Shown: piece by piece, positions 8,539-30,721 of the stretch | Layout of the letters: every line of letters begins with the position of its first letter | How positions within the stretch are numbered: position 1 is the first letter of the stretch | From: Chaetoceros tenuissimus | Taxonomy: Eukaryota; Bacillariophyta; Thalassiosirophyceae; Chaetocerotales; Chaetocerotaceae | Assembly: GCA_021927905.1 (NCBI GenBank) | Contig: BLLK01000049.1 | Coordinates: forward strand, 239,073 to 303,072 | DNA: 64,000 nt | Direction of reading: 5' to 3' | Notes under the pieces: model-generated | Seen by the model: the letters and a program-made list of their open reading frames with translations, nothing else | The model's database searches: none | Told to the model about the DNA's origin: nothing | Program-made: the position numbers and the translations under genes

Positions 8539-8667
8539 TGTCTTCGTTTTAGTATTTAATAAAGTTTGATGTTTTAGAATGATCGCCTACTTTAGAGTTC
8601 ACTAGTTAGAGCATTTATTTCTGCTTGAGTGTGTGCTTTTTGATTTTCAACAGCAAACTCTCTGTGT

Positions 8668-8725: not shown

Positions 8726-8873
8726 AATTATAACGGCTATTTCAACCGTCACAAGTTTGAAATAATTGAAGGTGTTCTTTTTCAAGCTTCTCACTTCGTT
8801 CAGAGAACAACAAGATGATCTCTAAATCGTATAAAAACAAACAAAGAGCTTAGTTTAACTATTTCACACAATC

Positions 8874-9950: not shown

Positions 9951-9970
9951 CAACATTCTTTTCATTAAAT

Positions 9971-11345
9971 TTAATTTATGCCACAAACTGGAATCTTTCG
10001 CAATGAAACAAGGGAGCTTCTTTTCTCTTCGCTTGGATGTTTACAGCATTCCATAAAAGCTTTCTCAATAACCTCACGTTTCTCTAATCTTGAAGGGAAG
10101 ATGAAGCCTCTTTCTATGATTAGTTTGCAAACATCATTTGTATCGTCAGACTTTTGATTTAAACATTTCAGAGATGGATTATCGTAACCAAGACCGTTAT
10201 CAAAAGCCCATTGCACCCCTTCTATCCCATGATGGCATGCTATCTTTGAGAGAAGAATATACTTATTCAGGTCATTGGAAGTCCATGGCAGCTTCAAACG
10301 TTCTCGTAGATGTTTGACAAGTTCTATGTTGGGCAAAACGTCAAAGACATCGTCGATAGTATCGAAGCAATAGATTTCTTTGCCTTTCTCGAAAACTAAT
10401 TTGATACCTTCAAGCCATGGTTTGTCTTTAAGTGGTCCATATGTGTGATGAGATTTGTAGTTCGAAAGTAGTTCTTTCAACAAAGCGTTATCGAATCTTG
10501 AATACTTTCCAACTAGACATTCGAGGGCCGATAACTCCCTTAGTTCCCAACAAGCTTTCAATGTCAAAGAGGCACGTTTTGATCCGTCGTCGTCGAATGG
10601 ACAACCATTATCAACGAGGTATTTCAATTTCTGCGAACAATACTTCTCTTTTCCCGACGATAGTAAATAATAAATTTCACTATAGTTGAGGACACACCAT
10701 GGGCAACCATCCTCGTGGGCAAATTGAATCATTTCGAGAGAACCTCTAGAAACAATATCCGTCATGATGTAACGATTCCATTCCACTCCTACACTCCGAA
10801 GAAATTTGATTATTTCAAAGTCCTCAGCTGTGGTTAATATTTCTTTGTCTGTATATGTAAGATCATTGATAGCGTCCATAGTCAAACGATGGCCTAGACC
10901 GTGGAAGAAACGATATAATTCGATACTTTTTGCCTTAGCCAACGCCTTGTTAGTCTCATCGTTATTGAGATCGAAATGTCCCAGCATATCGAGGCAGAAC
11001 TCTATCATCTCCATAGATTTACTCTCAATGGCATAATGTATGTACTTTTCGCATTCTTCAAATCCCAAGCCATGAAGCCAATTTAGTACATCAAGTTGGC
11101 CACTAGAAATAGCACATAAACAAAAGTCATTGTTGGTACCAAAAATATCTATTTCGTGTAGACATCCGATGCTATGTAACCATTTTAATATCTCTAGTTG
11201 TCCATGTTCAATTGCTGATTGACAGTATTTCTGAAGCCATGTATAGGATTCAAACTGATCTTTGAGATAATGCAGCACGTGTAGATTGTCTCTGCTCGTA
11301 ATCTTGCCAGTATCCACTATTTCATCCTCCTCGTCATCGTCATTG
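9971..11345 (-). pseudogene. Headless ankyrin paralog behind a deletion junction
   Basis: Open frame of about 458 codons covering only the ankyrin half of a diverged family member (LHVLHYLKDQFESYTWLQKY, IEHGQLEILKWLHSIGC, FAHEDGCPWCVLNYS). The left boundary in coding sense lies inside an acidic stretch (DDDEEDEIVD) like the variable spacer of paralogs. There is no F-box-like region, no N-terminal basic patch and no proper ATG: the frame could begin only at a GTG. It overlaps the end of the upstream gene in a different frame, so it is not translated as a continuation. The tail (IFPSRLEKREVIEKAFMECC) matches the family. I read it as the back half of a second gene whose front was deleted. Confidence 0.7.
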
Positions 11346-13446: not shown

Positions 13447-13581
13447 CGTAGTGATTCTCTTCGTATTAGTAGTTGATACAGTATGATGTTGCCTCCTTCA
13501 GTTCAGTTTCAGAGAACTAGTTAGAGCATGATGAGAGTACTGTTTGATTTTTCAATTTTGGAACAAGGGTTCCGAACTGAT

Positions 13582-13635
13582 GTCGGATCAGGCGTCGGAC
13601 CAGATTGTGCGCGTCAATGGATAGCTAAATTGGTC
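13582..13635 (-). promoter_or_regulatory. Shared upstream block of the ankyrin array (copy 3)
   Basis: Has GTCGGATCA, CGTCGGACCAG, TTGTGCGCGTC and CTAAATTGGT in the same order as other copies, 136-189 nt upstream of ATG 13446. GTCCGCGTC is changed to GTGCGCGTC here. Confidence 0.55.
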
Positions 13636-14017
13636 GTAATCACAAATCTATTTTTGATTTCATGCCTCTTATAAATTATTTGTCAACGCTGTAGTTTATT
13701 GATCATAATAACTGTTCCACCAGCACGTATTCTTGTTTGCATTGCGGTGTGGAATGTTGGAGGATGCAACAGTATCGCTCATTACACGGAATGAGTCTAG
13801 TACCTACAAAGTATCGATTAGCAAAATAAATTCATTATTTATGGATATTTATCAAAGGAGTTCTTACACGATTGAGTAAACAGGCTTTGAGCGGCTGCAA
13901 GCAATGACAATAATTATAACAATGGCTCAAACTTCGATGCATGATCGAATCTCTCATGAAAATGATCTTCTGCATCTAGTCACAACATTCTTTCTATTTT
14001 CGTGCATAACTTGCTAG
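13636..14017. other. Intergenic, no gene seen
   Basis: AT-rich spacer of about 380 bases with no frame or RNA that I recognise. The last 40 bases before 14018 (CTATTTTCGTGCATAACTTG) resemble 19197-19220, so they look like a conserved 3' flank of array genes. Confidence 0.4.
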
Positions 14018-16156
14018 CTATCGAAGTCCAATTTGTTGAATGATTTCAAGTCTCTTCCTATGTTCTTTGTTTTCAGAATTTTCACAACATGCTTTGAAAG
14101 CTTCTACTGTAACATAGTCTCTTTCTGACCTAGAGCGGAAAGTGTATCCATGGTCGACAAGAGACTTCAAGGAAGAGAGATCAATTTTGAAAAAAGTAGA
14201 TCTGGATTCCAGTTGAGCATCGCCGACATCTTGAACAAACGTTGGGGCCAATATCTTCTCTTCTAACATTCCAATTTGTTCAAAGAAGGCCTGATTTGCT
14301 TTCCATGAGGCTTGATGCCTGATACCACCCTCTTTCCACTCTTCTTTTACAAACGGAACTAAATTACCTCCTTTACAGCCATGTTCATATACCCACTTGA
14401 CATCATCCAGATTATTGTAGCATGCAATTTTCGAAAGTAAATGATTGTTTTGTGATTCATCTAAACACCATGGTAAACCTAGACTATGAAAATATTTGAT
14501 TCCATCTATCAGGTGGAGATGATGAAAAACTTCTTCGATTGACTTGAAGCTATGAGTAACACCGCTACCCTTTTGCAAAAGATAAGAGATACCCTCAAAC
14601 CAAGGTTCACCATCACGACGATTCAAAATCCTTTTAAAGAGATCCTTGTCGAAGCTTGAGTTCTTCCCAACAAAATATTCAAGCAATTTTAGATTTTTGT
14701 GTGCAGCTAGAGAGGATTGGATCCTGAAAGTAAGTTTCTTATAATCCAATAAACAGCCATGCTCTATGAGGTAATCTAATTTTTCAAAACTCCATCTGTT
14801 CCTCCACAAAATAACATCATATTCACCTCCATTCTTCGACCAAGGGTAACCATTTTCATGAGCAAATCTCACCATTTCTAGAGTACCAAATTCGACAAAA
14901 TCTAGCATGATTACACTATCCCAAGGAATTGAGATACTGTGAAGGAACTTTACAATTTCAAAATAATGACCGATATCATAGGCACTGCACCACTTCTGAA
15001 TTTCTTCAAATTGATAGCCGAGCTCGTAAATTAAATGATACACTTCAACACTTTTTGCACATTTGATTGCCTCTTGGACTCTGTTATTTTGCAAGTCGTT
15101 GTGTCCACGATCAAAGCAAAATTTGATCATTTGTAATGACTTGCTACTAATGGCGTCAGCCAGAATATCACCTCTGCTACCTTTCATCCAAAAGCCATTC
15201 TGTAAATGCCATTTGAGCACTTCGAGCTTACCGCTTTTCACCGCATGTTTACAGACATCTAAACCACTATCTAAACGAGCAATGCTTTTAAGAAACTGTA
15301 GTATATCAAGTTGCCCATGCTCAATAGCAGGTTTACGATATCTTTCCAGTCCCAGGCAGTAATGTGCTTCTTCATAAAGGTATTTGAGCACATGTAAATG
15401 ACCTCTTTCAACAAGTTTATCAAGATTCACTTTATGGCTCACTGGAATTTTCGAACGTTTTAATTCATCTTCCTCAGCGGAGTACTTACGATGATACGAT
15501 ATGTAATACATTTTGGCTAAGGGGAACAAGTCGTAGCCATCTTTTACAGCAGCTCTCAAGATATCAATATTGCCGTTCACTGCAGCTGCTTTGAGTATCT
15601 CATCTTTCTCTTCCAAAGACTTACAAAGCTTACCAAGGCAATGATTTGCTAGATTTACAGATGTTGCCATTTCAAGATTTGCAGTTTCTTGACCAAATCC
15701 TGCTTTATAGGTTTTGTAGAGCTTCTCAGATGCCAGAGCTACTGATCCATAGTGGCCTTTACCGACAAAAGACAAGCAATTCTTTAACACTTCGTCGGGA
15801 AGAGAAAAGAGGGTTATAATTTCGTCTTTCTTATTTAGAAGAAGTGGAGCTTTACTCTTCTTTTTCGTTTTGCTGTTAGCCTCCTCCTCCGACGACGACT
15901 CTGTGCGCTTCTTTACTACTGCAGCCTCTATGATCTCTTGCAAATTATCATAATTAATAATGTACTTCATCTCTGGAAATTCATCATACAAATCATAAAG
16001 TCTGCTTGATATTTTTGAGGCTCTTTGGACGACGTTGGAAAAAGAATTACTTTGTTCTTCTGTAGCAGTAGATGTAGTAGAAGCAGAAGCAACCTCCATT
16101 CGTGTCCTTTTCCTTCTCATTCCAGATTCGAGATCTTTTTCAAGTTCATTACTCAT
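14018..16156 (-). CDS. F-box-like/ankyrin repeat protein (complete)
   Basis: The frame extends upstream to 16375, but homology places the start at ATG 16156 (MSNELEKDLESGMRRKRTRM), giving 712 residues. The preceding 73 codons are hydrophobic and unlike any paralog. Family features: basic N-terminus, YDEFPEMKYIINYDNLQ, F-box-like LPDEVLKNCLSFVGKGHYG, KAAAVNGNIDILRAAVKDGY, and units such as VERGHLHVLKYLYEEAHY and FAHENGYPWS. The tail has VDHGYTFRSRSER and HRKRLEIIQQIG. The segment between the coiled start and the F-box contains an unusual Lys/Ser-rich insert (SSSEEEANSKTKKKSKAPL). The full shared upstream block is absent; only a CTAAATTGGTATG stretch at about 16310 recalls it. Confidence 0.87.
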   Translation of the reverse strand: MSNELEKDLESGMRRKRTRMEVASASTTSTATEEQSNSFSNVVQRASKISSRLYDLYDEFPEMKYIINYDNLQEIIEAAVVKKRTESSSEEEANSKTKKKSKAPLLLNKKDEIITLFSLPDEVLKNCLSFVGKGHYGSVALASEKLYKTYKAGFGQETANLEMATSVNLANHCLGKLCKSLEEKDEILKAAAVNGNIDILRAAVKDGYDLFPLAKMYYISYHRKYSAEEDELKRSKIPVSHKVNLDKLVERGHLHVLKYLYEEAHYCLGLERYRKPAIEHGQLDILQFLKSIARLDSGLDVCKHAVKSGKLEVLKWHLQNGFWMKGSRGDILADAISSKSLQMIKFCFDRGHNDLQNNRVQEAIKCAKSVEVYHLIYELGYQFEEIQKWCSAYDIGHYFEIVKFLHSISIPWDSVIMLDFVEFGTLEMVRFAHENGYPWSKNGGEYDVILWRNRWSFEKLDYLIEHGCLLDYKKLTFRIQSSLAAHKNLKLLEYFVGKNSSFDKDLFKRILNRRDGEPWFEGISYLLQKGSGVTHSFKSIEEVFHHLHLIDGIKYFHSLGLPWCLDESQNNHLLSKIACYNNLDDVKWVYEHGCKGGNLVPFVKEEWKEGGIRHQASWKANQAFFEQIGMLEEKILAPTFVQDVGDAQLESRSTFFKIDLSSLKSLVDHGYTFRSRSERDYVTVEAFKACCENSENKEHRKRLEIIQQIGLR

Positions 16157-16427
16157 TGCAGCTTCTTTATATAATTGATACACTAAGAATAGAAACAAAA
16201 ATATGATGTGGGGTGTGTGAATATATATGTTCAATGGTTGTGTGCTGTGTGCTGCACGGAGAAGAACACTAAACATGTATTTTCCAATGACGGGCAAAAA
16301 CAAAATTACTAAATTGGTATGATAAGGCAAAGTCATTGTTTTATAGTAAAGAACAATCAATTTAGACATACTCATGATACCTCAGAACAGAAAAACGCAC
16401 AATTTTTCCAATTAGTCCAGCTAGACT

Positions 16428-18539
16428 TTATAGACCACGAACACCCATTCCAACAAATAGCGCGAACCTCTTTCGATAGTCTTCATTTTGAGAATGTTCA
16501 CAACAATACCTGTATGCTTCTTTTGTAACGGATTTCTGCTCTGAAATAGAACGAAAAGTATATCCATGATCGATAAGAATTTTCAATATGGCGAAATCAA
16601 TATGGAACCAAGAATACAATGACTTCAGGTGAGACGCTCCAATCTCTTGAGCATTCTTTGCATCAATTTCTTCAGCATTCACAAAAATTTCCATTCTACT
16701 TTCAGTTTCACTGAGAGAGGGATTATGCAGCATTCCATTCCTTTCAAAGAATATCTTATTTACTCTCCAATTGGGATTACATAGGCATCTCATTCCACTC
16801 GATCCACATTCTACTTCTACGTAAGGAATTGAGTTTCCTCCTTTACATCCGTTTTCATATGCCCATTTCACACCATCTAAATCATTGAAGCATGCTATTT
16901 TCGAAAGCAGTTGAGTGTTTCTTGATGGGTCTAGACACCATGGCAAGCCTTGACTATGGAAATATTTGATTCCGTCAATTGAGTGTCGTCTTTGAAAAAC
17001 TTCCTCGATTGATCTGAATTTCTCTAGATGTTTGCCCTTTTCTAATAGATAAGAGATGCCTACAAACCAAGGTTCACTACCATTATGATTAAACATCTTC
17101 TTCAAAAGCTCATTGTCAAAGATTGAGTCTATCCCGATGAAATAGTCAAGTAGCGCAAGTTCTCTTCTTTCCAGTAAAGAATAGTTCAAAGGGTTGTCAT
17201 GGTCAAATTTGCAGCCGGTTTCCATAAGAAACTCCAATTTTGCAAAACTGAACTCATCACTTCCAAAGAGAACACTATATTCTTCTCCATGGGTCGTCCA
17301 AGAGCAACCTTCTTCATAAGCGTACTGAAGCATCTCGAGAGTACCATGTTCTACAATCTCTCTCAGGATATCGTCATCCCACGGAATAGAGATACTGCGA
17401 AGGAACTTGATAATTTCAAAATATTCCGCAGAAGCAGTATGATACCATCCGTCAATTCCCCTGTAGTCGTAGCCTAAATCGTACATTAAACGAAATACTT
17501 TTACATTTTTGATTTCTTTCAGTGCCTCTTGAACAAGGGTATTTTGCACACGATTGAATCCTTCATCAAAGCAGTATTGAATCATTTCCAAAGACTCGCT
17601 TCTTACGGCATCAGCAATAATTTTATATCCACACCCTACTATCCTAAAGCCTCTCTGTAAAAGCCATTTGAGCACTTTGAGCTTACCACTCTTTATTGCA
17701 TATCTACAGAAATCAACAAAGTCAAAATCCAAATCATCGTCGCCCAAACAACCAATACTCAGTAGCCACTCCAGTATCTCAAGTTGTCCATGTTGAATGG
17801 CAGGTTCGCAATACCTTTGAAGGCCCAGGAAGTGATTAAGTTCCTCGTGAAGATATTTGAGTACATGTAAATGACCTCTTTCGATAAGCTTGGATGAGTA
17901 TTTTTTCTCATTCTCTAATGCGTAATGCAAACCCTCAACACCATAATTTCTTTTGTAGTTCATTTTGACTAATTGAAACAAATCATGACCATTTGAAACT
18001 GCATAACGTAAAAAATCTACATTCCCATTAACTGCAGCTGCTTTGATTATTTCATCTTTCTCCTTCAACGTTGTACAAAGTTCATTGAAACAGTGACTTG
18101 CTAGATCCACAGATGTTGCCATTTCAAGATACCCAGTTTCTCGACCAAATTCTTCCTTGTACGTTTTCCAGAGTTTCTTGGAAGTAAGAGCTATAGAGCC
18201 GTAATGGCCTTTACCTAAGAACGCTAAACATTTACGCACTAGTTCATCTGGAAGCGTTATACTGTTCTTCGACTCTTCCACTTCTTCTGCATACTTTTCG
18301 ACTGCGGCCTCAACATTCAATTTCAAATTTTCAAAATCAATCAAGAACTTCATCTCTGGAAACTCATTATACAAAGAATGTATTTTGCTGGATAATTTCT
18401 TTGCTCTAGAAAGAGCCCGATCATTCTCATTACTGACTTCTAGAGAACAAGAACGAGTAGAGGAGCAAGGAGGAGCCTCCTCTCTTCGTGCTCTTTTCCG
18501 CCCAGTTTCGGTAACTTCTCCGATTACACTTAAACTCAT
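16428..18539 (-). CDS. F-box-like/ankyrin repeat protein (complete)
   Basis: The start is set at ATG 18539 (MSLSVIGEVTETGRKRARRE) by homology, giving 703 residues; upstream in-frame codons are unlike the family. It has YNEFPEMKFLIDFENLK, F-box-like LPDELVRKCLAFLGKGHYG and ATSVDLASHCFNELCTTL. Ankyrin-type units (ERGHLHVLKYLHEELNHFLG, AIQHGQLEILEWLLSIGC, YAYEEGCSWT, WAYENGCKGG) follow. The tail IDHGYTFRSISEQ and YRKRFALFVGMGVRGL is complete. It is distinguished by a longer segment after NGMLHNPSLSE in the C-terminal third. The shared upstream block lies 112-171 nt before the ATG. Confidence 0.88.
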   Translation of the reverse strand: MSLSVIGEVTETGRKRARREEAPPCSSTRSCSLEVSNENDRALSRAKKLSSKIHSLYNEFPEMKFLIDFENLKLNVEAAVEKYAEEVEESKNSITLPDELVRKCLAFLGKGHYGSIALTSKKLWKTYKEEFGRETGYLEMATSVDLASHCFNELCTTLKEKDEIIKAAAVNGNVDFLRYAVSNGHDLFQLVKMNYKRNYGVEGLHYALENEKKYSSKLIERGHLHVLKYLHEELNHFLGLQRYCEPAIQHGQLEILEWLLSIGCLGDDDLDFDFVDFCRYAIKSGKLKVLKWLLQRGFRIVGCGYKIIADAVRSESLEMIQYCFDEGFNRVQNTLVQEALKEIKNVKVFRLMYDLGYDYRGIDGWYHTASAEYFEIIKFLRSISIPWDDDILREIVEHGTLEMLQYAYEEGCSWTTHGEEYSVLFGSDEFSFAKLEFLMETGCKFDHDNPLNYSLLERRELALLDYFIGIDSIFDNELLKKMFNHNGSEPWFVGISYLLEKGKHLEKFRSIEEVFQRRHSIDGIKYFHSQGLPWCLDPSRNTQLLSKIACFNDLDGVKWAYENGCKGGNSIPYVEVECGSSGMRCLCNPNWRVNKIFFERNGMLHNPSLSETESRMEIFVNAEEIDAKNAQEIGASHLKSLYSWFHIDFAILKILIDHGYTFRSISEQKSVTKEAYRYCCEHSQNEDYRKRFALFVGMGVRGL

Positions 18540-18650
18540 TGTATATTCTTTTTCCTTTTTCTTTCGATTTGCTATGCTGCGGTAATTCAGTAATACACAC
18601 AGCAAATTCAAATTAATTTTTGTTGCGTGAAAAGATGTCTTTAGACGAGC

Positions 18651-18710
18651 GTCGGATCTGAGGTCGACCTTGCAGCTTGTCCGCGTGTCAAGGAACGTCT
18701 AATTTGGTCA
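18651..18710 (-). promoter_or_regulatory. Shared upstream block of the ankyrin array (copy 4)
   Basis: The most complete copy together with 3912-3970: GTCGGATCTGAGGTCGACCT, CAGCTTGTCCGCGTGTC and CTAATTTGGTCA, in order, 112-171 nt upstream of ATG 18539. Confidence 0.62.
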
Positions 18711-18779
18711 GAAAAGAATTCTTTTTTTATTTTTTTTCTATTTTCAATTTTCGAGTAGAACTTTGTTAAGGTACTGACC

Positions 18780-19010
18780 TCCAATTTTCTGAATAAATGC
18801 TAGCCTTTTCACAACATTTCGAATATGCTTCTTTAGTGACAGAATCTTTCTCTGACTAGAACGAAAAGTGTATCCATGGTCGAGAAGAGATTTCAAAGAA
18901 GTACAGAAAATTAGAAAGTAAAAGCATATTCCAATCCGAGTTCAGCATCTTTAAACTCTTGAGATAGCATTACATTCTCCTCGAAGAAAACCTTATTTGC
19001 TTTCCATTGC
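18780..19010 (-). pseudogene. 3' remnant of another ankyrin paralog
   Basis: The stretch matches the last ~75 codons of array genes on the minus strand. It covers the text equivalent to SEKESVTKEAY (TATGCTTCTTTAGTGACAGA at 18822), DHGYTFRS (GAAAAGTGTATCCATGGTCG at 18862) and the EENxxxLS region near 18970-19000. Small indels break every frame, and the rest of the gene is gone. It shows that at least one more copy once stood between the genes at 16428 and 19274. Confidence 0.65.
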
Positions 19011-19231
19011 CCTGGTGTACACAATGTCAGTGTGGTGGGGTAGGATGCCAGGCCTACCGCCAAAAACAATGCTTACTCCCGCCCAAAGCTCAGTTATCTG
19101 AATATGCTCATGTACAAAGAAAAACAATGATGATCCATATTTATTATGTTCACTAGAACCTTGATAGTAGAATCTCTAAGAATGCTAATCCCCTAAATCT
19201 ATTTTCGTGCAAAACTTGGCAAGATACTGCT

Positions 19232-19300
19232 AAAAAGGATCGTAGCGCTTGAACGCCAATTTGTTGAAAAGGATCATAGCTCTCGAATTCCGATTTGTTG
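19232..19300. repeat. Tandem 34-bp duplication at a gene end
   Basis: Two adjacent imperfect copies (19232-19266 and 19267-19300) share AAAAGGATC, a variable middle and ATTTGTTG. The right copy contains the stop codon of the gene at 19274; the left copy lies just past it. A simple local duplication of the stop-codon region. Confidence 0.6.
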
Positions 19301-21340
19301 AATAATTGCAAATCTCTTACGAGATTCTTCCATTGAAGAGGAACGACGACAGCATTCCTTGAACGCTTCTTTTGTAATAGATTCTTTCTCTGATAGAGAA
19401 CGAAAAGTGTATCCATGATCGAAAAGAGATTTCAATGTAGAAAAGTCAATTTTAATAAATCCAGGTTTTGGTTTGAACTGAGCATCTCCAATCTCTATAA
19501 CATTCATCCGAGATAATATTTTTTTCTCCTCAAAAAGCGTCTGAGCTAGCATTCGATTCTCTGCAAAGAAAGTCTGATTTTCTTTCCATTTACGATTCTG
19601 TCTGATTCCTCCCCATTCCCATTCTTCTGCTACGTAAGGAACTAAATACCCACCTCGGCAGCCATTCTCGTATGCCCATTTCACATCATCCAAGTCATTG
19701 TAGCATGCTATTTTCGAAAGCAGATGAGTATTTCTGGAGCTGTCAAAGCACCACGGCAAGCCTTGACTTTGGAAATATTTGATTCCATCTATATTATTTC
19801 TAATATGAAAAACGTCTTCGATTGATTTGAAGTTCTGAACATCTTTGCCCTTTTCCAATAGATAAGTGATACCTTCAAACCAAGGATGATAACCGCAATA
19901 TTTCAACATATCTTGCAAAAGCGTGTTGTCGAATTTTGTGTTCTTTCCAACAAAATAATCAAGAAGTGCAAAATCTTTCTTTTCCAATAGAGAATATGTG
20001 TAAAGCATGTCATAGTCAAATGTGCAGCCATTTCCTATGAGGTACTCAAATTTCGCAAAGCTGAACTTATCACTTCCGAAGAGAACATTAAATTCCTGAG
20101 TATCCCATGGGCAACCGTCTTCGTGAGCAAACTTAATCATCTCGAGAGTACCATCTGCTACAAACTCTAGCATAATTCCGTCATCCCATGGAACAGAGAT
20201 GCTGCGAAGAAACTTGATGATTTCAAAATAGTCCGTAATTCTATATCCACAACACCACTTTCGAATTTCGGTAAATTGATAGCCTAACTCGTACATTAAA
20301 CGAAAGACTTCGACGCTTCTTGTCACTTTGATTGCATCCTCCAGAGAAACATCTTGTAAGTCAATGTGCCCAAGATCATAGCAGTATTGAATCATTTCTA
20401 ATGACTCGCTTCGAATGGCATCAGCCAATATATATTCATTGCTTTCTTTGATTCCAAATCCATTACTTAAAAGCCATTTGAGCACTTCTAGTTTACCACT
20501 CTTGATTGCATATCCACAGAAATCTAAACTAGTATTTAAACGAGCATTGTCCATGCAACCAATGCTTTGCAGCCACTGAATTATCTCAAGTTTTCCATGC
20601 TTTATTGCAGGCTTACAATATCTTTGTAGCCCAAAGTAGTAATTTAGCTCCTCATGCAGGTACTTGAGAACATGCAAATGATCTCTTTCGACAATTTTGA
20701 AAGTCCTTACTTTTTTGTGTGACGAGAATTTTATTTCATGATCCTCATCTTCATAGTATATATCACCATCACTCGCAAAATATGTAGTGTGTTCCATCTC
20801 AACTAATGGAAAAAAATCATATCCATTTAAATCTGCGTATCGTAGAATATCAATGTCGCCATTCACTGCAGCAGCTTTGAGTATCTCATCTTTCTCTTTC
20901 CATGATTTACATAGTTCATTAATGCAGTAATCTGTAAGTTGTACAGACGTTGCCATTTCAAGATATGCAGTTTCTCTTCCGAATTCTTCTTTGTAGACTT
21001 CGTTCAGCTTCTTTGATGTAAGAGACACTGATCCATAATGGCCTTTACCTACGTATGACAAGCACTTGAGAAGTATTTCATTGGGTAAAGAATAAAGCGC
21101 AGATTCCTCGTTGCAGTTCATAGCGTACTTTTCTACTGCAACCGCTACACTCTCTTGCAAATTTTCAAAATCAATGAGAAACTTCATCTCTGGAAATTCT
21201 TTCAATAAATCAGATAGTTTCCTTGACAGGTTTTTGGCTCTTTGTTCTTCGTCGGTCGTGCTACTTTCTGCAGCAAGAGTAGAATCCTCTGTTCTTGCCC
21301 TCTTTCTTCCCGATTCGAGAGCATTTCCGATGTCAAACAT
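19274..21340 (-). CDS. F-box-like/ankyrin repeat protein (complete)
   Basis: A 688-codon frame from ATG 21340 (MFDIGNALESGRKRARTED). Features: LLKEFPEMKFLIDFENLQ, F-box-like LPNEILLKCLSYVGKGHYG (about 97-115), KAAAVNGDIDILRYADLNGY, acidic insert DGDIYYEDEDHEIKF, then ankyrin-type units (ERDHLHVLKYLHEELNYYFG, AIKHGKLEIIQWLQSIGC, FAHEDGCPWD, WAYENGCRGG). The tail FDHGYTFRSLSEKE and SRKRFAIIQQIGIREL is complete. It is the shortest complete copy because its N-terminal linker is short. The stop codon lies in a local 34-bp duplication. The shared upstream block is 143-188 nt before the ATG but is the most decayed of the six. Confidence 0.88.
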   Translation of the reverse strand: MFDIGNALESGRKRARTEDSTLAAESSTTDEEQRAKNLSRKLSDLLKEFPEMKFLIDFENLQESVAVAVEKYAMNCNEESALYSLPNEILLKCLSYVGKGHYGSVSLTSKKLNEVYKEEFGRETAYLEMATSVQLTDYCINELCKSWKEKDEILKAAAVNGDIDILRYADLNGYDFFPLVEMEHTTYFASDGDIYYEDEDHEIKFSSHKKVRTFKIVERDHLHVLKYLHEELNYYFGLQRYCKPAIKHGKLEIIQWLQSIGCMDNARLNTSLDFCGYAIKSGKLEVLKWLLSNGFGIKESNEYILADAIRSESLEMIQYCYDLGHIDLQDVSLEDAIKVTRSVEVFRLMYELGYQFTEIRKWCCGYRITDYFEIIKFLRSISVPWDDGIMLEFVADGTLEMIKFAHEDGCPWDTQEFNVLFGSDKFSFAKFEYLIGNGCTFDYDMLYTYSLLEKKDFALLDYFVGKNTKFDNTLLQDMLKYCGYHPWFEGITYLLEKGKDVQNFKSIEDVFHIRNNIDGIKYFQSQGLPWCFDSSRNTHLLSKIACYNDLDDVKWAYENGCRGGYLVPYVAEEWEWGGIRQNRKWKENQTFFAENRMLAQTLFEEKKILSRMNVIEIGDAQFKPKPGFIKIDFSTLKSLFDHGYTFRSLSEKESITKEAFKECCRRSSSMEESRKRFAIIQQIGIREL

Positions 21341-21482
21341 TGTAGCTATACTTGCTTGCTATGTGAATAGGTATGTATTGTTGATAAACAATGTAAAATG
21401 TTAGAATGATGCATCAAAAGATATTCGCAGTTTCTGTGTGATGCTTCTCTGTCATCTTGAATCTGTCAAAAGAGCGTTGGTG

Positions 21483-21528
21483 GTCGGATCAGAAGGTCGG
21501 TCCATCTTTTCAGGGCTAAATTGGTATA
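21483..21528 (-). promoter_or_regulatory. Shared upstream block of the ankyrin array (copy 5, degraded)
   Basis: GTCGGATCAGAAGGTCGGTC and GCTAAATTGGTATAC are kept in order, but the CAGCTTGTCCGCGTC middle part is not recognisable. It lies 143-188 nt upstream of ATG 21340. Confidence 0.45.
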
Positions 21529-21934
21529 CGTCAAAATTCAATTTTAATTTCGAGATCTAAAATAAAGTAATCGCATTAATTTCAGGATTGACTTTATAAC
21601 CTTTTTAAATTAGCGAGGAAGAAACTCGAAAAACAACATGAACAAATGTTGAACGGTGCAAGTATAGTCTTGATGACCGTTTTCTTTTTTCCTTGCTTCT
21701 ATTTCCTACAAGTCCAAGTCCTACATATCCGACTCCATTTTTTCTCACTGAAGGATGCTCGTTGAAGAATAAATAAAACTAATAGCCTTCTTCCCAAGAA
21801 GAGATTCAATAACTGCAAGATGTTGATCGTTACTTGGTATACAAGATCAAATCCTATACATACAAAAGTAAGTTTTCAAACGTTTATTTTACAATATACA
21901 AAGCAACAAAATAGACTTTATCTTATTGAAGTGG
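21529..21934. other. Intergenic, no gene seen
   Basis: About 400 bases of AT-rich spacer. A short stretch near 21740-21820 (TTCTTCCCAAGAAGAGATTCAATAACTGCAAGATGTTGATCGTTACT) resembles part of the RavA-like exon at 24618-24660 (CTTCTTCCCAAAGAGCTTCAAGAACTGAAACGCGTTGATCGTTACT). It is a possible small duplicated fragment of that gene. Confidence 0.4.
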
Positions 21935-24214
21935 TTAAAGCTCTCTAACCCCCATGTTCACAAATAGCGCAAGTCTCTTCCGACAGTCTTCAAAAGTTTG
22001 ATCATTGTACCAATCATTGCAACATTCGATGTATGCTTTTTTGGTAACAGATTCTTTCTCTAGCTTTGAGCGAAAAGTGTATCCATGATCGACTAAAGTT
22101 CTTAATAGAGAATAGTGAAGAATAAACCAAGCTGAATGAGGCCGTAAAATCTGACTCGAACTTAGCATCTGAACCTTTGCATCTCCAATCTCCTGAGCAT
22201 TTTTTGAATTCAGATAACTGAACTCATTCTTCTTTAAAATGGTCTTATCTAGCATTCCATTCTCCTCGAAGAAGGCCTGGTTCTCTCTCCATTTAGCTTC
22301 ATGTCTAATTCCATACTCTTCCCATTCCTCTTTTACGAAAGGAACTAAATCCCCTCCTTTGCAACCATTCTTGTATGCCCACTTCACATCATCCAATTTA
22401 TTATAACATGCAATTTTCGAAAGTAGATGAGTGTTTCTTGAGCTGTCTACGCACCAAGGCAATCCTAAACCGTGAAAGTATTTGATTCTGTCAAAACCAG
22501 TATGTTTATGAAAGAATTCTTCGATTGATTGAAAGTTTTCGACATTTTTGCCTTTTTCTAATAGATAAGAGATACCTTCAGTCCACATATTACAATACCA
22601 ATCATTCAAAATCTTCCTGAAAAGCTTATTATCAAAACTTGCGTTCTTTCCAACAAAATAGTGCAGCAATACTAGTTCTTTCTTTTTTGTAAGAGTGTTT
22701 ATCAAATCAGATGAATGCTCATAGTCAAGAATGCAGCCATTGTCTATGAGATAATCTAATTTGTCTAAACTCCATCTATGATTCTTGAAAAGAAAGTTAT
22801 ATTCAGCTCCTCTATTAGTCCAAGGGCAACCGTCCTGACGAGCATACTGAATCATCTCTAAAGTACCATCTGCCACAATATCTTTCATAATACCATCATT
22901 CCATGGAATTGAGATACTACGAAGAAACTTGATGATTTCAAAGTGTTCTGGAGATGCTCTACAATACCATTCTTTAATTCCCCTGAATTCATAGCCTAAT
23001 TCGTACATTTTACGAAACACTTCTACACTTTTTGTCTCTTTTATTGCATCTTGGACACTATCCCCTCTCAAGTCGTCGAATCCAATATCGAAGCAGTATT
23101 GGATCATATCAATAGAGTTGGTTCTTATTGCTTTAGGTAAAACATCCAAACTTGATATTTCATAACCATTCTGTAAAAGCCATTTGAGAACTTCGACATT
23201 CCCACTTTTAATCGCATAGTCACAATAACCTTTGTTACTTAAAGTACCATTGTCCATATAACCGAGATGCAAAGCGCTAGTTTTCATTACAGTTATAGAA
23301 TCTAGCCATTCCAATATTTTGAGCTGGCCATGTTGGATAGCAGGATAACAGTATCGCTGTAGTCCCAAAAAGTAATTGAGTTCTTGATAGAGGTACTTTA
23401 GAACATGTAAATGACCTCTCTCCACGAGCTTAGAGAGGTTTACTTTTTTTGATGGTAACAAGTTCTTCTTCTCCCTTTCACCTATATAGTATACATCAAA
23501 AGTGGTAACTCTAGCCTTTCTATCAGAATTAATGTCATCTTCATCAACACTGTCATTATCGTATTCATGCTGAGTTTTCTTCTTCATTGCAATTAATGGG
23601 AACAAGTCGTAGCCGTTTTTTACAGCAGCTCGCAAAATATCTACATTACCATTGACTGCAGCTGCCTTGAGAATTTCATCTTTCTCCTCCAATGTCTTAC
23701 AAAGCTCGCTGAGACAATGATTTGTTAGTTTGACAGATGTCGCCATTTCAAGATATGCTGTCTCACTTCCGAACTCTCCTTTATAAGCTTCATATAGCTT
23801 TTTGGACACTAGCCCGACTACTCCATAATGGCCTTTACCAATATAAGCCAAGCAATTACTCAATGCTTCATCTGGTAAAGAATACAAAGGAACTGTTTTC
23901 TGTCCGTAGTTCATGTGTAGTTGATTTTTACGCTTCTTCGCTTCTTTCTCCTCTACATACTTTACTACCGCTGTCTCTGTGATAGCTTGCAAATTTTCAA
24001 AATCAATAACAAACTTGAGCTCTGGAAATTCTTTCAATAATACAGATAGTCTTGTAGATATTTTCTTTGCTCTGTAAGCATCAGAAGCACTAAGAACTTT
24101 AAGCAGAGTCCCATCATGATCGTCCTTGTTACTGACAGAAGAAGTAAAGAAAGTTGCCTCTCCTGTTCGTGCTCTTTTTCTTACTGATTCAGAATCTTCA
24201 ACATCAGTAGCCAT
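21935..24214 (-). CDS. F-box-like/ankyrin repeat protein (complete)
   Basis: Complete 759-residue copy from ATG 24214 (MATDVEDSESVRKRARTGE). It has LLKEFPELKFVIDFENLQ, F-box-like LPDEALSNCLAYIGKGHYG, KAAAVNGNVDILRAAVKNGY and the longest variable insert of the family: about 55 charged residues between LFPLIAMKKK and KVNLSKLVERGHLHVL. Ankyrin-type units continue (AIQHGQLKILEWLDSI, YARQDGCPWTNRG, WAYKNGCKGG), and the tail VDHGYTFRSKLEKE and CRKRLALFVNMGVREL is intact. It is the right-most member of the array, head next to a plastid AAA+ gene that points the same way. Confidence 0.88.
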   Translation of the reverse strand: MATDVEDSESVRKRARTGEATFFTSSVSNKDDHDGTLLKVLSASDAYRAKKISTRLSVLLKEFPELKFVIDFENLQAITETAVVKYVEEKEAKKRKNQLHMNYGQKTVPLYSLPDEALSNCLAYIGKGHYGVVGLVSKKLYEAYKGEFGSETAYLEMATSVKLTNHCLSELCKTLEEKDEILKAAAVNGNVDILRAAVKNGYDLFPLIAMKKKTQHEYDNDSVDEDDINSDRKARVTTFDVYYIGEREKKNLLPSKKVNLSKLVERGHLHVLKYLYQELNYFLGLQRYCYPAIQHGQLKILEWLDSITVMKTSALHLGYMDNGTLSNKGYCDYAIKSGNVEVLKWLLQNGYEISSLDVLPKAIRTNSIDMIQYCFDIGFDDLRGDSVQDAIKETKSVEVFRKMYELGYEFRGIKEWYCRASPEHFEIIKFLRSISIPWNDGIMKDIVADGTLEMIQYARQDGCPWTNRGAEYNFLFKNHRWSLDKLDYLIDNGCILDYEHSSDLINTLTKKKELVLLHYFVGKNASFDNKLFRKILNDWYCNMWTEGISYLLEKGKNVENFQSIEEFFHKHTGFDRIKYFHGLGLPWCVDSSRNTHLLSKIACYNKLDDVKWAYKNGCKGGDLVPFVKEEWEEYGIRHEAKWRENQAFFEENGMLDKTILKKNEFSYLNSKNAQEIGDAKVQMLSSSQILRPHSAWFILHYSLLRTLVDHGYTFRSKLEKESVTKKAYIECCNDWYNDQTFEDCRKRLALFVNMGVREL

Positions 24215-24490: not shown

Positions 24491-27400
24491 TTACCCGTCT
24501 AATTTCTTCTTTGCTCGCTTCCATTTTCGAAAAGTGTCGATGTCATATCTCTTCTTAGCCTCACGCATGTCCAATGCCATTTCTTCCTCACTGAAAACAG
24601 CATTGGGTGAGTAGCCTTCTTCCCAAAGAGCTTCAAGAACTGAAACGCGTTGATCGTTACTAGGTTCATCATTTTCTCCCTCTAAACAATAAAGAAACGA
24701 TTGACAATCTAGTAGACCAATAACTACTTCATCTAGTGCTTTTCTTGCTTTTGGTAAAAGAGATTGACAAATACTTTTGACCTCATTGGAATCACACCAA
24801 AGATAGGACTCCGACTCATCAAGTAGCTCGATATGACGAAGTAAATCTGACTGTTGACCTTTCCACACTTCTGAAATTTGATCTAGTTCCGTTTTGAGAG
24901 AAGCAATCGAAGCAAGGTCATCATCTCTTGCTCCAGCTTCTCCGTTTATATCGCCAGAGGTTCTTCGCAATACATCTATTGCTTCGCTTCTTAGAGTATC
25001 TAGTAAGAGTCGAAGCTGAGCAACCTCTTGCCCAGGGGTCAAATGACTCAAAAGCCAATCTTTTACAATACTCTTTTGTTCTGGCAGATGCCACATGCAA
25101 TGTTGTAACAAAAGACAATCGATAGGATCAACACTTTGCCTTCCGTGAGAAGCAGCACTAATCTTTAACAATCTTGCTGCCTTTACTAGTCGACGATCGC
25201 TAATGTCTACACTGTGCTCTTCACGCATATAAGTTCTCAAATCTTTCATAATCAGCGCTATTGATCGTGACAAATGGACTTGCTCAGATGCTTTGGATAG
25301 ATTGCTAATTATCTCATCAATGCTTCCTATTTCATATTGAGATACCTCGCAACTTTCGTCGGAAGCAACGTTACAATGTGGATTAGACATGGTCAAGAGT
25401 TCCAATACAGCTTCATCGGATACTCTTGAGACTTCCTTACGTATTAGAAATCGGTCATAAAGAGCTACAAGCTCATCACTCTCAGGTAACTCATTTGAGG
25501 CACCCACGACACACCGTATAGGGCATTCGCAATCTTCATCACCATTAGTAAATTTTCTTTCATTCAATATTGTGAGTAGTGTGTTGAGAATAGCGGAGTT
25601 AGCTTTGAAGATTTCATCTAAGAATGCAATGTCAGCTGTGGGGAGGTATCCCTTTGTGATTCTCTTGTATTCATCGTTTTCGAGGCTTTTGAGAGACAAT
25701 GGACCAAACAGTTCTTCTGGAGTACTAAACTTTGTTAATAATCTATTGAAGAATTCACCATCACAAAGATTTGAAAGCCTTCTACCAAGAACAGATTTAC
25801 CAGTACCCTAGAAACGAAAGTCATCTATTAGACCATTTATTTATATCTTGATAATCAAGAATTTCTTCAAGGAAAATATGAACTTACCGGAACTCCCAAA
25901 AGTAAAATATGCTCTTCTGCAAGCATTGCTAGTAGAACAAGAGATGCCTCTTCTTGCCTCTCAACCAAACCTTCGCTAACGGACTCAATTGCCGCTATGA
26001 GATTATGCCTATAGGTCCAACATGAACCTTTTGCCTCTCTTTCTGCCTCGAGAGCAGCACTGGTCCATTTACTATTGCGGATTTCGTTCTCAATTCGTCT
26101 ATGAATTTCGTTGATTGAATTTTCCACCTCCGCACCAAAGTCGTCTGTAAGGTCATTAGGTGTTCCGCTATAAATACTATCAACATTTACAAAGTCATCG
26201 TAGTCATCTTTTTCATCATCCCATTTACTTGATCTTTTCTTCTTTCCTTTCTTCTTTCCTTTTCTACCTGTACCTTCATCATAGTCAGAAAACTTTGCCC
26301 TAAGTGTAAATGTCGCTTTCTTTCTCTGAGAATAATTTCTTGACCCAAATCCAAGACGACTTGAAGATTTACTGGAATATAGTGCACTGTTTGATCTTAG
26401 ATTCATGGGAAGTCCACGACTTTCTAGTAGAGATGTTTCAATATCGTAGTTCAATAGGAAATCATGAACCTCAGTACATAGTTTGGAAAGTGGCTTGCTT
26501 TCTTTCTTACCCACAATCAATCCATGTATTTCAACACCTTTGCTAAGTTTCAGCCTTTCGAGCTTTTCCATAACTTTTTCCGATACTGGTGGATCAGGAA
26601 TTTCTCCATCGGAAATCAATAAAATGTCTGCTGCAGCCATAATCTCCGAGTTCAGACTATCCATTGCAAATTTCAAAGCTCCAGTAACATCCGTACCTCC
26701 CCCAAATGAATTTGAAAGAAAAGAAAGTAAACGTCGAACTCCTTCTGCATCTTTGGTAATGATCCCCGCTTCAATTACTCCTCGTTCTGTTGAGAACGCA
26801 ACTACTTGGCAATCTCTTTGCTGTTTATGAGCCATTGTAACGCATGCAAGTACAACAGCCTTTGATAGTGTTTCTCTACTACCAGTCATTGAGTACGAAG
26901 TATCAAGACAAATAATGATTGGACCTCCTGTAGCAGAAGGCATCCGCTTTTGATACAATGGTCTCGTTTGAGGTACACTAGGGACATCTTCCCATCCAGA
27001 ACGTTCATAACTCAATAATTTCGACTCTGCCATTTTGGCGAGGAATAGTCGTCTCAAAGCTTTGGATGAATTGGAACCATCGACTTTGACCCTCAAACCC
27101 ACAGCTTCGGAAGGCAACATTTCTGCTAAATTGGAAGACCTAGTGATTCCACTAATGGATTCTTTACTACTCGGATCAAATTGTGCACCCATACTTCCAT
27201 CTTTTTGCAACTTGCGAGGTGCAAATTTCCGAATCTCATTACTATTCTCAGCAGTAGGCCTTCTTCCAATATTATTCATCAAATCTTTCAGTTCATGCAT
27301 TGAACTAATCTGTTTTTGTAGTGCTGGTATTTCCTTCCAACCTGAATTCTTCCAAATACCATCTTCAATTCCGAAACCCAATGTAGAACCTCCTAATCCG

Positions 27401-28191
27401 TCTCCATCATCTTGTGCAAATACATCCAATAGGCCGTGATCATAACCAAACATTTCATCTAGCAATGTAACTCCAGTCACAACGTCTTTCCACTTGTTTT
27501 GAAGCTCGTTGGCAACATCTTGTGCAATAGATTCCAATTGAGCATCTGAAAGTGTAATTTCATTCTCATTTTCATCTTGTACAGGCTCTTCCTCTTCGTA
27601 CTCGGTATAATCTTGAAACAAATCATACTCGTCAAAGTAATCATCTTGTTCCTCTTCCATCTGTTCTTCCAAGTATTCATTGACAGTAGCCATATATTGA
27701 AATGTCAACTTGATCACCGTCAATAAAACACTTGATAAAGTCTCTGGATGCTTGGATACAAAACGAGGTAACTCTAATTCACTCATGACATGAATAAACT
27801 TTTCATAAAGTGGAGGAGTCGGCCATGTGTCATGTTCAAAATCTAAGACTGTAGGATATCTTCCTTTGGACAAACATGATCTCCATATTTGAATGCCAAG
27901 TGATGTTGATGCAATGTTGACTCCGTTTTGAAATACATTAGTTTCTTGCTGACTCTCGATGGCGTTAATGAGGAGTGGATCAATTGACATTACTGGTTCC
28001 TCTAGTGTCGGAGAAGAGAGAATATTTAGTCGGGAACTTCTTGTCAATCTCTCAAGTAGTCTATGAGATGATGTCTTGTAGTAGTTTGAAGATTGAAATG
28101 CATTTACCTGACCGATAAAAAGGCCAATCGAAATCAGCAGCACTTCAAATGCTACGAAAACATGACTTTTGGCAATCCACCTCAAGCTCAT
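24491..28191 (-). CDS. Plastid-targeted ViaA-RavA fusion (VWA + MoxR-type AAA+ ATPase)
   Basis: Two exons (28191-25888 and 25807-24491) joined by a phase-0, 80-nt intron (GTAAGT...CTAG) encode about 1206 residues. The ATG at 28191 is used because the frame before it offers only TTG. Residues 1-35 form a signal peptide ending QVNAF-QSS, a diatom plastid-type cleavage motif. A ViaA-like VWA domain lies at about 420-600 with MIDAS residues in CLDTSYSMTG and the ViaA-typical FGGGTDVTGAL and ADILLISDGEI. A Lys-rich linker (KGKKKGKKKRSSK) follows. The C-terminal RavA/MoxR AAA+ has Walker A GVPGTGKS split by the intron, LFGPLSLKSL, GYLPTADIAFLDEIFKAN (Walker B, about 828), ILNTLLTILNERKF and GASNELPESDELVALYDRF. 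The lid has DRRLVKAARLLKISA and LLLQHCMW. In enterobacteria RavA and ViaA are separate partners; here they are one chain. Confidence 0.9.
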
Positions 28192-28952: not shown

Positions 28953-30721
28953 ATGGTTGCTTCCTCGAAATTATTGACACTCTTTATTATTCCTATGGTG
29001 ACAGGAACAATATCGATTGTTTCTTCGTCGTCTCTCATGTTCTGCATTCTAGTTTACTCACAGATCAAGTTAAAGAGGGTGGTACGAAGGATACTGTTCA
29101 TGTTTTGTATCTATGATTGCATATATTCCTTGGGATCTGCGCTGTCCATATTCTTGACTCCAGAATGGACAAGTAAATATGCACTTGGAAATCTCATTAC
29201 TTGTGACATTCAAGGGTAAGGAAGAAGTACTAGGATCATGATACACTGCTGTCGAAATAACAAACAAGTAGCTCTTTAGAAATGACTTTCTAACAATTTC
29301 CTTTACATAGGGCCATGGTTCAAATTGGATTTGCAGGATCAGCTTTCTATACCCTTTCTCTCGCAATCTATTATGTTGCAATCATTAAGTTCAATAGAAA
29401 GGAAAAAGATATTTCTAACAAACTGTTTGAATATATCCTCCATTCGATTCCAAACAGTTTTGCAATTATTTCGGGCATTTTCTTAGCTGTCAAACGCCAA
29501 TATGGGCCATTAGCTGAAAACCATGCATGTTGGCTTGGAATCCATCCGAGAAATTGTCTAACCGACCCTGATGTAGAATGTGAACGAGGTAGCCACATGA
29601 CTATCATAGAATATGCTAAGTGGGTTTTTGTCATTCCATTCATGTTAATTTATTTCCTTGTATTCTGTACAATGATGATTGCATGTCATCATGTAATAAT
29701 TCAAAAACGGAAGGCTGACAAATGGAGAATGCAAACAGCAGGACGAGACTTGTCAAAATCTTCTTTCTGTTGCTTTGTTCAACGAAAGAAGTCAGGAACT
29801 TTACAAGAATTCATTCAAGAGCCGGTGTCATCACTTTCTCCAGCACAAACGAAGTTCATGAGAATGCAGCAAGCATTATCTAAAAAGTCAATCGCCTCAG
29901 GCGAAGAAAATACATGTATCCTATTTGGTGCAAGTACCAGTAGATCCGGAACAAAGCAGGACCCACTTGCATTCAATGTACATCAAGTCAAGAAGAAGAT
30001 TCGAAGGGAGTCTATGTTAGATCATGATGCGCCTATTGTTCTTAGCAGTTTTAATTCTGATGATAGGCCGCTAAGAAGCTCTCGTAAAAGCAGTAGACGA
30101 CGCGAAATGGCTTCTCGGGATGAAAAGATTGCAATTACCCAATGTATTCTATATATTTCTAGCTTTCTGCTTTGTTGGATATTCGCTCTAATTGCTAGAA
30201 TCTATGGAATCACAGGTAATCCTGCACCATTTGAAGTAGTACTGTTGTCACGTATCTTTAATCCTCTGCAGGGTTTCTTCTTTATTCTAGTTTACTCAAG
30301 ACCTCATGTCAAGGCAATTCAGAAGAGTGATCCTGAGTTGAAGTGGTTTCAAGCTTTTGTTATTGCTTTCAAGGCTGGTGGAGACAATGATTTTGGTGGC
30401 AACCAACTGGAAGTAGTTGATGAAAATGGTATCGATGTTCCTCGTCTTCGAGACTCGGAACGTGAGCGGAGACAAGAGATTGTTAGGCAACAGTACAAAA
30501 GAAGGAGCGTTTCTTATAGATCTACTTATAACTCAAGATCATACTCGAATATAGAGGGAAAAGAATCTGACATGTCTGAAATCGATTTTGCAGTAGTGGA
30601 TGGAACAACCATAAAGGAATTTGAATTGGAATTAGCTCATGTAGCAAAAAATGATACAGATGTCGAAGCAATTATGTTGCCAAAGAAAGATAAAGACAAG
30701 ATTGATGATATTGTAGTATAA
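28953..30721 (+). CDS. Seven-helix receptor-like protein (GPCR-like, copy 1)
   Basis: Exons 28953-29215 and 29311-30721, with a 95-nt phase-2 intron (GTAAGG...ATAG), encode 557 residues. Seven hydrophobic segments are visible: TM1 LLTLFIIPMVTGTISIV (7-30), TM2 ILFMFCIYDCIYSLGSAL (47-66), then FAGSAFYTLSLAIYYVAI, SFAIISGIFLAV, VFVIPFMLIYFLVFCTMMIA. A long cytoplasmic loop of about 130 residues precedes TM6 CILYISSFLLCWIFALIA and TM7 FNPLQGFFFILVYSRP. The TM7 text and the overall plan recall cAMP-receptor-like/class E GPCRs. The extracellular loop CWLGIHPRNCLTDPDVEC has four cysteines. The cytoplasmic tail is acidic. Ligand and G protein are unknown. The paralog at 37028 has the intron at the identical site. 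Confidence 0.78.

What the first reader, a model, noticed from the sequence alone, without database searches (positions are those of the whole stretch)
24491..28191. ViaA and RavA fused in one plastid-targeted protein
Seen: ViaA-type VWA domain with DxSxS MIDAS, then a complete RavA/MoxR AAA+ domain with RavA-specific text, behind a plastid-type presequence. Known: in enterobacteria RavA hexamers and ViaA are separate operon partners linked to respiratory complexes and metal/aminoglycoside phenotypes. Inference: a 1:1 built-in chaperone machine for a plastid metalloenzyme or complex.
Basis: partly seen in the sequence, partly recalled or inferred. Interest (0 to 1): 0.7.

Follow-up and report, generated by a model that had tools for sequence, protein, structure and literature searches.

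The report
Plastid-bound fused ViaA–RavA-like chaperone
A diatom-like alga carries a single gene in which two bacterial proteins that normally work as separate partners, a metal-binding adaptor and a ring-shaped ATP-driven motor, are joined end to end and given what looks like an address label for the chloroplast; it looks like a captured bacterial gene pair turned into a one-piece enzyme-maturing machine.

Summary
On the minus strand, exon 1 (28191–25888), an 80-nt GT–AG intron and exon 2 (25807–24491) give one 1206-aa protein. The intron cuts Walker A, so neither exon is a complete ATPase gene. NCBIfam finds ViaA (112 bits) then RavA (243 bits), both far below equivalog cut-offs. Layout: plastid-type presequence; ViaA-type N-terminal domain; VWA with full MIDAS; long linker; RavA-type AAA+; helical tail without LARA. 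Both halves group with one proteobacterial clade beside the E. coli/Vibrio pair (concatenated tree 100/97; AU p 0.008). Of 80 bacterial and archaeal loci, 77 have a VWA ORF: 76 separate and downstream, one fused as RavA→ViaA. Host light-harvesting precursors carry AFAP signals (11 of 14 read). Best reading: a laterally acquired, fused AAA+/VWA chaperone imported into the plastid to mature a redox metalloenzyme. In one gammaproteobacterial branch the pair ends a predicted nitrate/nitrite reductase operon, a weak hint at a siroheme/Fe–S client. Localisation, client and activity are untested; other algae could not be searched and cyanobacteria barely.

The parts
25888..28191 (-). Exon 1: presequence, ViaA-type N-terminal domain, VWA domain, linker and first part of the AAA+ domain (residues 1-768)
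   Evidence: gene model; ViaA 295-558; VWA; bpMoxR from residue 731
28099..28191 (-). Signal peptide MSLRWIAKSHVFVAFEVLLISIGLFIGQVNA (residues 1-31), predicted by eye
   Evidence: hydrophobic core and V-x-A^F site read from the sequence; pattern cuts after residue 31; no SignalP or ASAFind run
28039..28098 (-). First 20 residues of the transit-peptide-like stretch, FQSSNYYKTSSHRLLERLTR: 6 Ser/Thr, 4 Lys/Arg, 1 acidic
   Evidence: criteria from PMC4329603 (passages)
26464..27897 (-). ViaA-like region (residues 99-576): N-terminal domain plus VWA with MIDAS D430, S432, S434, T500, D528
   Evidence: (clade HMM 303 bits, residues 99-615), alignment
26047..26463 (-). Linker, about residues 577-715, pLDDT under 50 at 596-685, with GRKGKKKGKKKR
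   Evidence: model; sequence; borders approximate
25808..25887 (-). 80-nt GT-AG intron inside the Walker A motif
24491..25807 (-). Exon 2: rest of the AAA+ domain (GTGKS, AFLDEI, sensor N, DRFLIR, SDRR), lid, and helical C-terminal tail about 1035-1206 without LARA or RavA_C

Best explanation
It is a nucleus-encoded, plastid-imported AAA+/VWA chaperone made by fusing a ViaA-type adaptor to the front of a RavA-type MoxR ATPase. Shown here: the gene model, conserved ATPase and MIDAS residues, the grouping of both halves with one proteobacterial clade beside E. coli-type RavA-ViaA, and no second bpMoxR match in this genome search. Inferred: the ATPase assembles as a hexamer; the N-terminal ViaA domain, which in E. 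coli binds RavA, docks on its own ring; the VWA domain, on a long flexible linker, holds a client through its metal site; ATP hydrolysis remodels the client, as proposed for NorQD, CbbQO and RavA-ViaA. The likeliest client class is a plastid redox metalloenzyme (Fe-S, siroheme or flavin); a ferredoxin-dependent nitrite or sulfite reductase is the first candidate to test.
For: Splice inside Walker A. RavA and ViaA models hit; RavA chains hit by sequence at 1e-47 and top the fold search. HMMs from 48 sister-clade loci score 398 bits on the AAA+ half and 303 on the ViaA half (residues 99-615), against 270 and 124 bits (295-551 only) for E. coli/Vibrio-type models. Concatenated tree: window beside 28 sister-clade pairs, 100/97; holding it with 7 E. 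coli-type pairs is rejected, p-AU 0.008. Separate AAA+ and VWA trees put it with the same clade. Host alga has 63 LHC matches, and 11 of 14 LHC loci read show AFAP. One bpMoxR match in the genome (6 candidates scored). RavA binding by the ViaA N-terminal part: PMC9489729; VWA finger in the MoxR pore: PMC9976466 (passages). Operon context: in one 11-row gammaproteobacterial subclade, 10 of 11 have the 4Fe-4S/DmsC gene and 8 of 11 the molybdenum oxidoreductase upstream; in L016 the run is NirB-NirD-PhzF-Mo oxidoreductase-DmsBC-like-RavA-ViaA.
Against: No transcript, proteomic or localisation data. The presequence reads AFQS where the host's LHC precursors read AFAP; the host's CbbX-like ORF, the one non-LHC control, showed no such motif in the frame read. 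The window branch is long (1.38, 2.41 and 1.96 changes per column), and the VWA tree nests it inside the clade while the other two put it beside. The reductase linkage is local: of the other 41 clade rows none has the 4Fe-4S/DmsC gene and one a Mo enzyme, scoring as formate dehydrogenase. Twenty other window ORFs scanned give no hint of function. Six tethered VWA domains per ring do not match the 6:1 reported for CbbQO and NorQD.
Confidence: 0.55

Rival explanations
1. It is translated as one chain but cut in the lysine-rich linker after import, so that the plastid holds separate ViaA-like and RavA-like proteins and can form the usual 6:1 complex. Fusion then serves import, not mechanism.
For: Long linker, disordered at 596-685, with GRKGKKKGKKKR between VWA and AAA+; 6:1 complexes of CbbQO and NorQD.
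Against: No processing site was tested for; nothing direct.
Confidence: 0.2
2. It acts on plastid membranes or lipids rather than on an enzyme, as E. coli RavA and ViaA bind anionic phospholipids at the inner membrane.
For: Lipid binding of both E. coli proteins (PMC9489729 abstract and passages); thylakoids hold anionic lipids (recalled).
Against: The E. coli lipid-binding residues were not compared here; the LARA-containing part of RavA is absent.
Confidence: 0.12
3. It is a Rubisco activase of the CbbQO type or a chelatase D-like protein in the plastid.
For: CbbQO is also a MoxR plus VWA pair; ChlD joins AAA+ and VWA (recalled); a weak cobaltochelatase match of the VWA part, 26.8 bits.
Against: No CbbX, ChlI or ChlD model hit at E<=0.1; best structures are RavA, with CbbQ and NorQ at 1e-6 against 1e-14; the genome has a separate CbbX-like gene, 405 bits; order VWA then AAA+, opposite to ChlD (recalled).
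Confidence: 0.03
4. The protein enters the secretory pathway and stays in the ER, vacuole or periplastid space, not the stroma.
For: A signal peptide alone is also used by secreted proteins; +2 and +3 differ from ASAFAP.
Against: F at +1 and a basic, Ser/Thr-rich, acid-poor stretch fit the published plastid criteria.
Confidence: 0.1

Closest known systems
E. coli RavA-ViaA (MoxR AAA+ plus VWA)
   Same: Same domain kinds; E. coli-derived models hit the two halves; MIDAS and ATPase residues conserved
   Different: One chain instead of two; ViaA part first; no LARA or RavA_C; plastid-type presequence; falls with a different clade
Proteobacterial RavA-ViaA sister clade (my label; e.g. L016, L019, L005)
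   Same: Best HMM scores of the sets tried for both halves, with the N-terminal ViaA domain; grouped in the concatenated tree
   Different: Two genes with RavA first; the window protein is fused in the opposite order, with a linker and presequence
L026 gammaproteobacterial single-ORF fusion
   Same: RavA and ViaA domains in one ORF
   Different: RavA then ViaA; a MAG contig, so an assembly effect is not excluded
NorQ-NorD and CbbQ-CbbO
   Same: MoxR AAA+ ring with a VWA adaptor; enzyme maturation or repair (passages)
   Different: Fold matches far weaker than RavA (1e-6 against 1e-14); two chains, 6:1
Eukaryotic AAA+/VWA proteins: midasin (Rea1), VWA8, ChlD
   Same: AAA+ with VWA; named together in PMC9976466 (passage)
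   Different: VWA follows the AAA+ part there (recalled); other AAA+ families; no tree made here

Membership tests
RavA (E. coli equivalog) | RavA-type MoxR AAA+ core | tested here: met
   NF010054 243 bits over 737-1036; RavA chains 1e-47; top fold match
RavA (E. coli equivalog) | NCBIfam equivalog cut-off (681 bits) | tested here: not met
   243 of 681 bits
RavA (E. coli equivalog) | LARA and RavA_C domains | tested here: not met
   absent at E<=0.1; present in E. coli RavA
RavA (E. coli equivalog) | Groups with E. coli/Vibrio RavA-ViaA | tested here: not met
   sister-clade placement 100/97; AU p 0.008 against (group named after the trees were seen)
ViaA (E. coli equivalog) | NCBIfam equivalog cut-off (500 bits) | tested here: not met
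   112 of 500 bits
ViaA | VWA with complete MIDAS | tested here: met
   D430, S432, S434, T500, D528
ViaA | N-terminal domain upstream of the VWA, as in the sister clade | tested here: met
   clade HMM aligns from residue 99; the E. coli/Vibrio-type model aligns only 295-551; RavA binding not testable
RavA-ViaA sister clade | AAA+ half groups with the clade | tested here: met
   SH-aLRT 96, 53 rows with window
RavA-ViaA sister clade | ViaA half groups with the clade | tested here: met
   50-row group with window, SH-aLRT 100
RavA-ViaA sister clade | Two genes, RavA then ViaA | tested here: not met
   single chain, ViaA first; 76 of 77 loci with a VWA ORF have two genes, RavA first
CbbX / Mg-chelatase | Match to CbbX, ChlI or ChlD models | tested here: not met
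   no such NCBIfam hit at E<=0.1; cobaltochelatase TIGR02442 26.8 of 779 bits on the VWA part; Pfam Mg_chelatase 17.6 bits, below its 20.3; CbbX search hits elsewhere
Diatom plastid proteins | Signal peptide, F at +1, basic Ser/Thr-rich transit stretch | tested here: met
   by sequence rule only; ASAFind and SignalP not run
Diatom plastid proteins | Experimental plastid location | not testable with these tools
   needs GFP or proteomics
Active AAA+ chaperone | ATP hydrolysis and hexamer | not testable with these tools
   needs purified protein

The most novel reading that the evidence does not exclude
A laterally acquired proteobacterial nitrate/nitrite-reductase maturation pair was fused, reordered and moved to the plastid of a diatom lineage, where it is a single-chain chaperone with six built-in VWA clamps that loads or repairs a siroheme/Fe-S reductase: a maturation step for plastid nitrogen or sulfur assimilation that I found no description of in the paper searches made.
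Probability: 0.12. Interest if true: 0.75.

Novelty: new variant of a known kind. Interest (0 to 1): 0.5.

Why it matters
RavA-ViaA has several proposed roles in bacteria (respiratory enzymes, lipids, antibiotic sensitivity). A one-piece version in a eukaryotic plastid, without the LARA domain that ties RavA to LdcI, would isolate the core function and make it testable by knock-out in a transformable diatom. If the placement holds, it also adds a component of proteobacterial rather than cyanobacterial affinity to the plastid proteome.

Tried and rejected
Two genes or an assembly artefact: rejected, because the intron lies in Walker A and the frame is open on both sides. CbbX or Mg-chelatase: rejected, without a tree. 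Membership in RavA/ViaA proper: rejected. Cyanobacterial origin: not supported, but thinly tested. In the plasmid collection the cyanobacterial hits listed were 30-35% identical, or 48% over 28% of the query in Acaryochloris, against 45% for the best hit, Lysinibacillus; the ViaA half finds Pseudanabaena at 28-29% over 35% of the query. The two cyanobacterial rows used (Acaryochloris L006, Chroococcidiopsis L008) fall outside the RavA clades. The control Synechococcus elongatus does not ring for ViaA, though it rings for bpMoxR.

Neighbours of the other subclades (ten proteins, one of them the ViaA ORF of L016) gave no shared theme. DUF364 lies beside the pair in 7 loci; I could not interpret it. 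The solved-structure sequence search with exon 1 gave nothing below E 0.28; the fold search finds VWA domains, NorD among them. Papers: RavA with ViaA and chloroplast (5 papers), MoxR with von Willebrand and diatom (5), 'ATPase RavA' with diatom (1), RavA with chloroplastic and alga (20 of 87 listed), MoxR with algal terms (10 of 10,053 listed): no report of a diatom or plastid RavA-ViaA fusion among the listings, of which I saw titles and abstract starts. The Marchantia plastid preprint has no 'RavA', and the ochrophyte plastid-proteome paper none of my five terms in its main text; supplements were not seen.
Full report
What is there. The stated interval holds one gene on the minus strand. 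ATG is at 28191; exon 1 runs to 25888; an 80-nt intron (GTAAGT...CTAG) occupies 25887-25808; exon 2 runs from 25807 to the stop at 24491. The spliced frame is 3621 nt and encodes 1206 aa with no internal stop. The intron splits the Walker A motif as GVP|GTGKS, so exon 1 holds the first part of the AAA+ domain and exon 2 the remainder; unspliced, the exon 1 frame ends six codons into the intron (ORF ending VSSYFP). This is the strongest internal evidence that the two domains are one gene. I have no transcript data.

Domains. NCBIfam matches ViaA (NF008230, E 3.8e-32, residues 295-558) and RavA (NF010054, E 7.1e-72, residues 737-1036); both score far below the equivalog cut-offs, 112 of 500 and 243 of 681 bits. 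The only other matches with E under 1e-3 are a weak cobaltochelatase match on the VWA part (26.8 bits) and LonB on the ATPase (18.5 bits). Pfam gives VWA_2 and VWA_CoxE at 424-546, bpMoxR at 731-924 (201 bits) and the AAA lid at 951-1020. E. coli RavA scores 191 bits with bpMoxR but also has LARA_dom and ATPase_RavA_C, which the window protein lacks. The MIDAS and ATPase residues are conserved. AlphaFold models, made for each exon apart, have mean pLDDT 75 (exon 2) and 64 (exon 1); the AAA+ and VWA cores are mostly above 80, and residues 596-685 are under 50. Foldseek places exon 2 first with E. coli RavA (1.4e-14), then a Cytophaga ATPase (5.1e-7), NorQ (1.4e-6) and, among MCM helicases, CbbQ (5.9e-6); TM-scores are low (0.28 for RavA), so this rests on local similarity. 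Exon 1 finds VWA domains of many kinds, NorD of NorQD at rank 25.

Presequence. The N-terminus is MSLRWIAKSHVFVAFEVLLISIGLFIGQVNA^FQSSNYYKTSSHRLLERLTR: a hydrophobic core, a V-x-A site, F at +1, and in the next 20 residues 6 Ser/Thr, 4 Lys/Arg and 1 acidic residue. PMC4329603 (passages) gives phenylalanine at +1, many hydroxylated residues, few negative charges and net positive charge as marks of diatom plastid transit peptides. As a control I read 14 light-harvesting loci of the same genome: 11 of 14 show AFAP after a short hydrophobic N-terminus (counted by eye in the output, whose pattern chose a later site in two and missed one); L185, L186 and L196 do not, and I did not resolve their 5' ends. 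The CbbX-like ORF read in the same call shows no such motif; whether its first exon is missing was not resolved. The fusion has AFQS where the LHC proteins have AFAP. SignalP and ASAFind were not run.

The host. The assembly has 41.0 Mb in 68 contigs, 63 LHC matches and a CbbX-like gene (405 bits) elsewhere. With ASAFAP-type presequences this is an alga with a red-lineage complex plastid, most likely a diatom; I did not identify the species. The genome search gives one bpMoxR match (6 candidates scored), one VWA_CoxE match (2 scored) and one ViaA match (1 scored), each at this gene; such searches work exon by exon and score only the best candidates.

Relatives. A scripted scan of the 80 loci finds a VWA ORF in 77: 76 downstream on the same strand, 0 upstream, 1 fused in the order RavA then ViaA (L026). 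Of 80 viral-contig loci kept of 130, 75 have one: 73 downstream, 2 upstream, 0 fused. In 200 genomes drawn from the phylum of G001, 135 have some match; 14 matches of the AAA+ part, in 13 genomes, reach E below 1e-45, in open frames of 390-569 aa, so none of these is fused. Among the weak AAA+ matches two lie in longer frames (918 and 1106 aa, E 9e-6 and 3e-5), which I did not examine, and the match list is cut. The order ViaA then RavA in one chain was thus not seen in what these calls examined.

Phylogeny. AAA+ tree of 97 rows: the window falls in a starred group (96) with 52 rows of Gamma- and Betaproteobacteria, Myxococcota and relatives; the E. coli/Vibrio RavA group lies outside, as do the cyanobacterial rows L006 and L008. 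VWA tree of 88 rows: a group of 50 rows at 100 holds the window with the same clade, and nests it beside L018, L023, L035 and L041 (87, unstarred). Concatenated tree of 51 rows, chosen by me from the available pairs: window beside 28 sister-clade pairs at 100/97, then 7 E. coli-type pairs. Forcing the window with those 7 is rejected (p-AU 0.008); I named that group after seeing the trees. The window branch is long in each tree, so its exact place, within or beside the clade, is open. Clade HMMs agree: 398 and 303 bits for the sister clade against 270 and 124 for the E. coli type; the gammaproteobacterial/myxobacterial and the combined sister-clade models align through the N-terminal ViaA domain, the betaproteobacterial one only in part.

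Context in bacteria. In an 11-row gammaproteobacterial subclade (SH-aLRT 90), 10 rows have a 4Fe-4S/DmsC gene, 8 a molybdenum oxidoreductase and 5 a NirD-like gene upstream on the same strand (by blastp clustering; some contigs end there). In L016 the genes are NirB (cut by the locus end, just above the nitri_red_nirB cut-off), NirD (above the TIGR02378 cut-off), PhzF, a Mo oxidoreductase nearest formate dehydrogenase and NasA/NasC models but below their cut-offs, DmsB/DmsC-like, RavA and ViaA. I read this as a nitrate/nitrite reductase operon. Of the other 41 rows of the clade none has the 4Fe-4S/DmsC gene; one (L034) has a Mo enzyme above the formate dehydrogenase cut-off. The association is real but local. 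The window's genome has five NIR_SIR matches at three places, so candidate siroheme clients exist.

How it probably works. In E. [quoted passage not shown] For NorQD a VWA finger in the MoxR pore is suggested as general, with one NorD per hexamer (PMC9976466, passages), and CbbQO is Q6O1 (PMC5437159, passages). I infer that the fused protein forms a ring with up to six tethered VWA domains, of which one may dock in the pore at a time, and that ATP turnover remodels a metalloenzyme client. Post-import cleavage in the linker would restore a bacterial-like complex and is the main rival.

Novelty. Paper searches (listings; passages seen in five papers; two more checked by term without hits) showed no description of such a fusion in an alga. 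The library is partial and algal protein databases were not available, so automated annotations may exist. I class it as a new variant of a known kind: known domains, new chain order, apparent new compartment, in a clade whose function I did not find described.

Noticed in passing
window 6271-24214, minus strand: Seven ORFs (6271, 9971, 11317, 14018, 16428, 19274, 21935) on one strand are paralogues at 35-59% identity, a tandem array; of the six tested in Pfam the last three match ankyrin repeats.
   Followed up: partly
L026 725-3157: A gammaproteobacterial MAG contig has RavA and ViaA domains in one 811-codon frame, in the opposite order to the window gene.
   Followed up: partly
L005, L057, L061, L064, L066, L080, L088: A DUF364-type gene ('putative heavy-metal chelation'; Pfam run on L061 only; L005 so annotated) lies beside the RavA-ViaA pair in seven loci, mainly betaproteobacterial.
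   Followed up: no
L089-L168: IMG/VR contigs hold 130 relatives of the RavA-type ATPase; 75 of the 80 kept have a VWA ORF nearby.
   Followed up: no
L006 3866-8369: An Acaryochloris plasmid pairs a MoxR ATPase and a VWA gene beside a NACHT-domain gene, reminiscent of the conflict systems of PMC7159879 (passages).
   Followed up: no
window 29315-30721, plus strand: An ORF with several apparent transmembrane stretches (by eye) and no Pfam match at 1e-5.
   Followed up: no
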